DNA from: Thermoanaerobaculales bacterium
Lineage (GTDB): Bacteria; Acidobacteriota; Thermoanaerobaculia; Thermoanaerobaculales; Sulfomarinibacteraceae
Length of the DNA: 64,000 nucleotides
Direction of reading: 5' to 3'
Assembly (NCBI GenBank): GCA_029287235.1
Contig: JARFRM010000040.1
Coordinates: forward strand, 1 to 64,000
Part shown: positions 15,433 to 33,757 of the stretch, one piece after another
Position numbering within the stretch: position 1 is the stretch's first letter
How the letters are laid out: every line of letters starts with the position of its first letter
Made by a program: the position numbers and the translations under genes
Notes under the pieces: model-generated
Databases searched by the model: none
What the model was told of the DNA's origin: nothing
Seen by the model: the letters and a program-made list of their open reading frames with translations, nothing else

Positions 15433-15592
15433 AGCCGTACCGGGTACGGTGGAATTCTCAGCCGTACCGCATTTTTCAGCCGTTTTAGCCGTACCTAGCC
15501 GTACCTTACCTAGCCGTACCTGGTACCACCTATTACGGTGATCGCTAGCCATATCTAGCCGTACCTGGTACGGTGATCGCTAGCCATACCTA
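15433..15592. repeat. Degenerate short repeat array, unit ~tAGCCGTACCt
   Basis: About nine AGCCGTACC/AGCCATACC-type units, plus acggtgatcgctagccata repeated twice. Confidence 0.75.
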
Positions 15593-24595: not shown

Positions 24596-25042
24596 ACCAC
24601 AAGGAAGCAAGGAACGCCAGGACATCGCACCGTCGCAAACACGAAGGCTCGAAGACACGGAGGACGTTCGAAGCCATCGCAATTGGAAGTGTGAGAGGCG
24701 TCGATTGAGGGTTGTAGGACTTCGTGGGAGCGCGCTTCCGGCCGGAACGAGCCTGAAGGGCAGGCAGGGATGCCTGCCCCCACAACCATCTCAGTACTTG
24801 CGATCCTCATTGTGGGGCGGGCTTCCAGCCTGCCCTTCAGTGGCCTTCCGGAGCTTCGGACCCGCCTCGAGAACGACCGGGGGGTGACCATGAGAACGAA
24901 GACACCCTCGTCACCGATGGGCCCGATCTCTGCGTTTCAATTGCAATGGTGCGAGGTCTTCGTATCTTCGCGCCTTCGTGGTTGCGACGATGCGACGATG
25001 CGCCGTTGCGATGTCCTTGCGTCCCTTGCGCCCTTGCGGTGA
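24596..25042. repeat. Modular intergenic repeat cluster with inverted-repeat layout
   Basis: ctgaagggcaggcagggatgcctgcccccacaaccatc paired with attgtggggcgggcttccagcctgcccttcag; caccgtcgcaaacacgaagg...ccatcgcaattg paired with caattgcaatggtgcgagg...cgtggttgcgacgatg. Confidence 0.75.
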
Positions 25043-32934: not shown

Positions 32935-33180
32935 TGCTGGATAGGAGCATCGCACGAACGCTGCACCCACAGATCACGCAGATAGGCGCAGATTCGTCGC
33001 AACATCGCCCGTCGCAACCACGAAGACTCCAAGACGCGAAGGCGGCACGAAGCCATCGCAGTTGAGAGCGGGGCTCGCGTGGGCTGATGACTGCCAGACA
33101 TCGTGGTGGAGCGATTCCGATTGGGATGACTCTGAAGGGCAGGCTGGAAGCCTACCCCACAATCCATCGCAGGTCATGGT
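32935..33180. repeat. Modular intergenic repeat (copy at 33 kb)
   Basis: cacagatcacgcagataggcgcagatt; cgtcgcaaccacgaagactccaagacgcgaagg; ctgaagggcaggctggaagcctaccccacaatccatcgca. Confidence 0.75.
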
Positions 33181-33527
33181 GTTGGGTTGAGGAGGCGCCA
33201 TGTGATGGCTCGGACCTCGTCGAAGAGTCGAAGCGCGTTGGTGGCTTGGGTTACGTCGATGGCAACCGCCCCGATGAGGAGACGAAGATGCGTGTCGACC
33301 TCCTTTGCGGAGCCGTAGGCAATTCGCCAGTGGTGCAACCGATCTCTTCCTGACCGCCCGTGACCTTCAGAGAGATTGGCCGGTACGGAAGACGCAGAAC
33401 GAATGACCTGATCTGCGAGGCTCTTGAGTGGAGCAGGAACACGCATTACGAGCGAGATGGCGATGCCGGCGGCTTCGAGGGCCTTGCGGTGGGCAATGAG
33501 GCCGGTTCCTGGGAGTGGGCTGTGCAT
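33174..33527 (-). CDS. Four-helix bundle protein (S23 / 23S rRNA intervening-sequence protein family)
   Basis: 'LADQVIRSASSVPANLSEGHGRSGRDRLHHWRIAYGSAKEVDTHLRLLI'; strong SD aggaggtgatc ahead of ATG. Confidence 0.8.
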   Translation of the reverse strand: MHSPLPGTGLIAHRKALEAAGIAISLVMRVPAPLKSLADQVIRSASSVPANLSEGHGRSGRDRLHHWRIAYGSAKEVDTHLRLLIGAVAIDVTQATNALRLFDEVRAITWRLLNPTP

Positions 33528-33566
33528 GATCACCTCCTGGTTGTTCATGCTTTCCCCCAACAGCCG

Positions 33567-33634
33567 CTGAGATGGCCGATGTCAAGGGTCGCCGCCGCGG
33601 CGACTCGTCTTGCCCTTGACATCGGCCATCTCAG
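33567..33634. repeat. Perfect 22 bp inverted repeat with 24 nt loop
   Basis: ctgagatggccgatgtcaaggg (33567-33588) / cccttgacatcggccatctcag (33613-33634). Confidence 0.9.
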
Positions 33635-33723
33635 GGGCTACTCGTCGTTTCAGAACAACCAGAAGGTGATCATGCCTGCCGCTGATCCTGCCGCTGATTC
33701 TGACGCTGTCCCTGTCCCTGTCC

Positions 33724-33757
33724 CGACAATAAAGCCGCCGGTCCGAAGACCGGCGGC
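33724..33757 (-). terminator. Rho-independent terminator downstream of minus-strand TonB receptor
   Basis: Minus strand gccgccggtcttcggaccggcggc followed by tttattgt. Confidence 0.75.

What the first reader, a model, noticed from the sequence alone, without database searches (positions are those of the whole stretch)
32935..33634. S23 four-helix-bundle ORF bracketed by a modular repeat and a perfect 22 bp inverted repeat
The S23-family ORF (33174-33527, strong SD) abuts a repeat block (32935-33180) on one side and a perfect 22 bp inverted repeat (33567-33588/33613-33634) on the other. S23/IVP proteins were first noted in 23S rRNA intervening sequences but occur widely with unclear function. 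The arrangement suggests a small element in which the ORF and repeats travel together.
Basis: partly seen in the sequence, partly recalled or inferred. Interest (0 to 1): 0.6.

Follow-up and report, generated by a model that had tools for sequence, protein, structure and literature searches.

The report
Dispersed S23 elements with palindromic heads
A small gene of unknown function (S23 family) sits behind a large DNA hairpin, usually next to six-base repeat arrays, and this package is found in many scattered copies in two bacterial phyla, with sites where it is missing in sister species; it looks like a mobile genetic element that carries none of the usual mobility enzymes.

Summary
The S23 ORF (33174-33527, minus) is headed by a two-tier palindrome: the reported 22-bp inverted repeat extends to 27 nt, and an outer 23-nt pair overlaps the S23 start, followed by a CAG-type hexamer array. 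The genome holds 12 related S23 copies; nine have the palindrome and seven the 3' module block. The layout recurs in relatives and in another phylum (Myxococcota, about 34% protein identity), where some elements carry two convergent S23 genes, each with its own palindrome, between two arrays. A strong palindrome precedes 81/107 such S23 genes against 1/106 same-locus controls; ordinary S23 genes show neither palindrome nor array (0/33). Stem arms co-vary, almost without G-U pairs; the ORFs are under purifying selection (dN/dS 0.07-0.16); orthologous sites lack the element in sister species, including the window site. The 3' module block also occurs without S23, so the ORF and palindrome, not the whole bracket, form the unit. 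Reverse transcriptases and Y1 transposases do not track the copies. Best reading: an S23-encoding mobile element that uses host or trans-acting enzymes. The mechanism is inferred. No earlier description was found in the open-access library.

The parts
33174..33527 (-). S23 (PF05635/TIGR02436) ORF, 117 aa, four-helix bundle; an in-frame ATG at 33548 is an alternative start (124 aa, MNNQEVIM...)
   Evidence: predicted fold pLDDT 93.5, best PDB matches 2gsc and 2rld
33524..33546 (-). outer stem, S23 side: SD/start region GAACAACCAGGAGGTGATCATGC
   Evidence: inverted repeat I2, 23 nt, 96%; co-varies among copies
33653..33675 (-). outer stem, array side: inverted copy of the S23 start region
   Evidence: I2
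33562..33588 (-). inner stem arm, S23 side (contains the reported 33567-33588)
   Evidence: I1; 16 of 26 pairs have changes on both sides
33613..33639 (-). inner stem arm, array side (contains the reported 33613-33634); preceded in the S23 orientation by GTAG
   Evidence: I1
33588..33604 (-). small apical hairpin GTCGCC...GGCGAC in the loop
   Evidence: helix 3, less well conserved
33676..33724 (-). degenerate CAG-hexamer array (CAGGGA CAGGGA CAGCGT CAGAAT CAGCGG CAGGAT CAGCGG)
   Evidence: tandem repeat 33675-33708; related arrays at other copies
32966..33171 (-). 3' modular block: module A 33060-33163, module B about 33010-33052, module C about 32966-32994, separated by TGCGATGG; a genomic repeat that is not confined to S23 loci
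   Evidence: 75 hits in the genome; read at 20 S23-less or truncated sites

Best explanation
This is one copy of a dispersed element family whose only conserved protein is a special branch of the S23 family. Shown: the unit is an S23 ORF directly behind a large palindrome, usually beside hexamer arrays; it is multi-copy, scattered in intergenic DNA, present or absent at orthologous sites between sister species, sometimes truncated or internally deleted, and its ORF is under purifying selection. Inferred: it is a mobile element. The palindrome, exposed as a single strand during replication, folds and is bound by S23 (a pentameric bundle in its solved relatives, and the fold of Avd); the bound complex is copied or joined into hexamer arrays, or DNA ends near gene 3' ends, by host replication/recombination enzymes or a trans-acting nuclease, because the element encodes no catalytic enzyme. 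The arrays would act as landing sites or as repeats for annealing and excision.
For: Dispersed copies: 12 in this genome, 24 matches in G007, 19 in G002. Palindrome 81/107 vs 1/106 controls; hexamer array 67/107 vs 0/74. Ordinary S23: 0/3 and 0/30. Same layout in Myxococcota, with seven of seven examined G040 copies flanked by arrays on both sides. Sites without the element: the L203 site is a bare array in G214 and has only short array traces in G224 and G176; the L201 site has neither element nor array in G176 and G224 but is occupied in G214; the L004 site is plain intergenic DNA in G002; the window site has no S23 in G001, while G002 has an S23 remnant in the opposite orientation. Internally deleted copies L049 and L060, 5'-truncated L010 and L015. 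Compensatory arms, 116 double-change cells, few G-U pairs. dN/dS 0.07-0.16. One branch, 100/99. All eight Myxococcota genomes with at least 40 array hits are S23-positive, hypergeometric p 1.4e-6. Avd-like fold.
Against: No transposition, excision product or target duplication was seen. Some shared losses rather than gains could explain individual sites. The arrays may be older local repeats that simply attract or tolerate insertions. Arm covariation can arise from replication template switching that perfects palindromes, without selection. Most genomes are draft or metagenome-assembled, and many copies lie at contig ends. DNA binding by S23 is not tested. 26 of 107 copies do not reach the palindrome threshold and 40 of 107 not the array threshold.
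Confidence: 0.6

Rival explanations
1. The palindrome is an RNA regulatory hairpin that hides the ribosome-binding site, so S23 controls its own translation; the copies are ordinary paralogues spread by duplication.
For: The outer stem includes the SD and start codon in Acidobacteriota, and the stem includes the SD in Myxococcota; strong compensatory pairing.
Against: G-U pairs are nearly absent while double Watson-Crick changes abound, which points to DNA-level pairing. It does not explain the flanking hexamer arrays, sites without the element or internally deleted copies without an ORF. Both ideas can hold together.
Confidence: 0.2
2. The palindromes are REP-like sequences mobilised by a Y1 (HUH) transposase acting in trans, as in TnpAREP/REP systems, and S23 is a passenger or cofactor.
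For: GTAG, the REP motif (PMC8266576), precedes the inner palindrome in 17 of 54 Acidobacteriota copies; Y1 genes are common, 17 matches in this genome.
Against: G008 has 12 S23 matches and G018 four, with no Y1 match (both incomplete genomes). Thirteen Y1 loci carry no S23-type head or module apart from one 26-nt match. No GTAG is apparent in the Myxococcota heads. S23 is under purifying selection, unlike a passenger.
Confidence: 0.12
3. It is a retroelement: S23, like Avd, partners a reverse transcriptase that copies the element through RNA.
For: Predicted fold matches Avd and the DGR reverse-transcriptase complex (TM about 0.75); 5'-truncated copies exist.
Against: G001, G002, G007 and G008, with 6 to 24 S23 matches, have no RVT_1 match.
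Confidence: 0.05
4. Plain recombination: S23 units lie between hexamer arrays and are moved only by homologous recombination among arrays, with no role for S23.
For: In the seven examined G040 copies the arrays flank both sides, on the same strand in those read; a bare array exists at the L203 orthologous site.
Against: dN/dS 0.07-0.16 and restriction to one S23 branch imply that the protein matters; many Acidobacteriota copies have an array on one side only or none detected.
Confidence: 0.15

Closest known systems
23S rRNA intervening sequences (IVS) with an S23 ORF, e.g. Coxiella burnetii (PMC4990558)
   Same: Selfish DNA with an S23-family ORF and complementary sequences that form a stem-loop
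   Different: Here the copies are intergenic and multi-copy, the palindrome lies 5' of the ORF rather than around it, hexamer arrays accompany it, and the S23 branch is separate from the ordinary S23 genes sampled
REP/TnpAREP (RAYT) systems (PMC8266576)
   Same: Dispersed intergenic palindromes tied to a gene for a small nucleic-acid protein; GTAG before some palindromes
   Different: S23 is not an HUH enzyme; the gene itself is multi-copy and moves with its palindrome; Y1 genes do not track the copies
Avd of diversity-generating retroelements (4DWL, 8UB7; PMC10053308)
   Same: Same four-helix-bundle fold
   Different: No reverse transcriptase in several of the host genomes; template/variable repeat pairs were not searched for
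Canonical S23 four-helix-bundle genes (2GSC, 2RLD)
   Same: Same Pfam family and fold
   Different: 0 of 33 examined have the palindrome or the array; separate branch of the tree

Membership tests
S23 / PF05635 / TIGR02436 protein family | Score above the curated model cut-offs and four-helix-bundle fold | tested here: met
   55.6 bits vs 33.8, 57.9 vs 24; fold match 2gsc TM 0.80
23S rRNA intervening sequence | Located inside an rRNA gene | tested here: not met
   Lies between a histone-deacetylase-like gene and a TonB receptor gene; other copies read are intergenic
23S rRNA intervening sequence | Complementary ends bracket the ORF | tested here: not met
   Both stems lie 5' of or at the start of the ORF
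REP/TnpAREP (REPtron) | Y1/HUH transposase next to cognate palindromes | tested here: not met
   13 Y1 loci lack S23-type palindromes except one 26-nt match; copies do not track Y1
REP/TnpAREP (REPtron) | GTAG before the palindrome | tested here: inconclusive
   GTAG in 17 and ATAG in 11 of 54 Acidobacteriota copies; none apparent in Myxococcota
Diversity-generating retroelement | Reverse transcriptase | tested here: not met
   No RVT_1 match in G001, G002, G007, G008
Diversity-generating retroelement | Template/variable repeat pair with A-specific changes | not tested
   -
Transposon or insertion sequence | Encodes a transposase with catalytic motifs | tested here: not met
   The only conserved ORF is S23; convergent partner is also S23
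Mobile element in general | Dispersed copies with empty orthologous sites | tested here: met
Mobile element in general | Observed movement or target-site duplication | not testable with these tools
   No strain series; array repeats hide any duplication

The most novel reading that the evidence does not exclude
S23 proteins of this branch are the active agents of a new class of bacterial mobile element: they recognise their own folded DNA palindrome and direct its insertion into, or the growth of, hexamer arrays without a conventional transposase or reverse transcriptase.
Probability: 0.35. Interest if true: 0.92.

Novelty: categorically new. Interest (0 to 1): 0.8.

Why it matters
The role of S23 proteins has been open since they were found in rRNA intervening sequences. 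This gives a concrete, testable role for one branch and links them to DNA palindromes and repeat arrays. It would add a kind of mobile DNA that lacks the usual enzymes, and may help explain why these genomes fragment in assembly and carry so many short repeats.

Tried and rejected
Reverse transcriptase (PF00078) and Y1 transposase (PF01797) as partners: neither tracks copy number. Y1 flanks for cognate palindromes: one 26-nt match only. Rfam: only microRNA-precursor and riboswitch matches far below their gathering scores. Plasmids: six weak cyanobacterial matches; phages: none. The 3' module block as the element's fixed end: rejected, because most of its 75 hits lack S23 and other genomes have other 3' sequence. 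Array counts in the own order with a loose CAS-hexamer pattern: suggestive only, since the reversed-pattern control is also high in several genomes. Literature: two searches for the family by name and for S23 with repeats found no description of this layout, but the library is open-access papers only.

Full report
Observation. The S23 ORF 33174-33527 (minus) is a genuine PF05635/TIGR02436 member. The reported inverted repeat is real and part of a larger two-tier palindrome: inner arms 33562-33588/33613-33639 and outer arms 33524-33546/33653-33675, the latter overlapping the S23 start. The head folds as DNA with z = -9.6. Next to it lies a CAG-type hexamer array (about 33676-33724). On the other side of the ORF is a modular block, modules A-C separated by TGCGATGG. 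The whole lies between a histone-deacetylase-like gene and a TonB receptor gene that converge on it.

Copies in the genome. The genome has 15 S23 matches. Twelve belong to one subfamily with the window copy. Nine of the 12 have the palindromic head; two are 5'-truncated and fused directly to tandem repeats (L010, L015); one is cut by its contig end. Seven have module A directly after the stop. The modular block has 75 hits, most without S23. Two of those loci are internally deleted elements: the outer arm followed directly by the end of the S23 ORF (L049, L060).

Relatives. Of 40 related genomes, 21 have matches, with 24 in G007 and 19 in G002; record titles place the family in Thermoanaerobaculales, Acidobacteriota. 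G007 has several S23 subfamilies whose outer arms differ in sequence but stay paired.

Second phylum. A Polyangiaceae record (L137) encodes an S23 at 34% identity with the same order: hexamer array, palindrome with the SD, S23, array. Its genome has nine near copies plus six matches to a convergent second S23 with its own palindrome. Arrays flank all seven copies examined. Of 237 Myxococcota genomes, 47 have matches, including one held as a single 10.3-Mb contig (G219), where arrays and more complex heads are again seen.

Statistics. An inverted-repeat score of at least 14 occurs upstream of 81/107 array-type S23 genes against 1/106 segments of the same loci and none of 107 shuffles; hexamer periodicity of at least 0.7 in 67/107 against 0/74. 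The 107 include a few ordinary S23 genes. Ordinary S23 genes: 0/3 in this genome and 0/30 in the phylum of L138. In a tree of 58 proteins the array-type S23 genes of both phyla fall on one side of a 100/99 branch; it is a long branch, the alignment is short and the rows were chosen by similarity. All eight Myxococcota genomes with at least 40 hits of a CAG-hexamer pattern are S23-positive, p 1.4e-6; relatedness among these genomes is not corrected for.

Covariation and selection. Among 20 Acidobacteriota copies, 27 of 54 pairs have changes on both sides, 116 double-change cells against 32 in shuffles, and few G-U pairs. That favours pairing at the DNA level, though template-switch correction of palindromes could also produce it. 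The Myxococcota set shows 60 double-change cells against 24 in shuffles, but the numbers of pairs and of pair types do not exceed shuffles. S23 dN/dS medians are 0.07-0.16 in four groups.

Sites without the element. Flanks of occupied sites were located in sister genomes and read. At the L203 site G214 has only an array, G224 and G176 only short array traces. At L201, G176 and G224 have neither array nor S23, while G214 has the two-S23 element. At L004, G002 has plain intergenic DNA. At the window site G001 has no S23 and no array, whereas G002 has an S23 remnant in the opposite orientation together with arrays, which suggests a repeatedly used site.

Mechanism. The element encodes no catalytic enzyme. 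Reverse transcriptases and Y1 transposases do not track it. The predicted S23 structure (pLDDT 93.5) matches solved S23 pentamers and, more weakly, Avd. I infer that S23 binds the folded palindrome and that host or trans-acting enzymes do the copying or joining, with arrays as landing or annealing sites. This step is not shown.

Comparison. It fails the location test for rRNA intervening sequences, the enzyme tests for REPtrons and diversity-generating retroelements, and the transposase test for insertion sequences. The protein family is known; the element type was not found described in the papers searched, an open-access library only.

Noticed in passing
window 24622-24840: Another copy of the modular repeat block, with an inverted partial copy beside it and no S23.
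   Followed up: partly
L002-L178 (G000, G001, G002, G007), contig ends: Many S23 copies lie within a few hundred bases of a contig end, so the palindromes and arrays probably break short-read assembly; true copy numbers may be higher.
   Followed up: no
G000, e.g. L363-L371: 17 Y1 transposase matches in this genome, more than in any of the other 39; their own palindromes were not found.
   Followed up: partly
L215 (G224:C301): The S23 start region with its SD is duplicated directly upstream of the ORF, as if by slippage or a partial copying event.
   Followed up: no
G007, L147-L158: Long degenerate GACACG/CAGGGT-type hexamer tracts fill the intergenic DNA on both sides of S23 loci.
   Followed up: no
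window 15492-15592: Short tandem repeat of CTAGC/CTAGT-containing units, unrelated to the S23 element.
   Followed up: no
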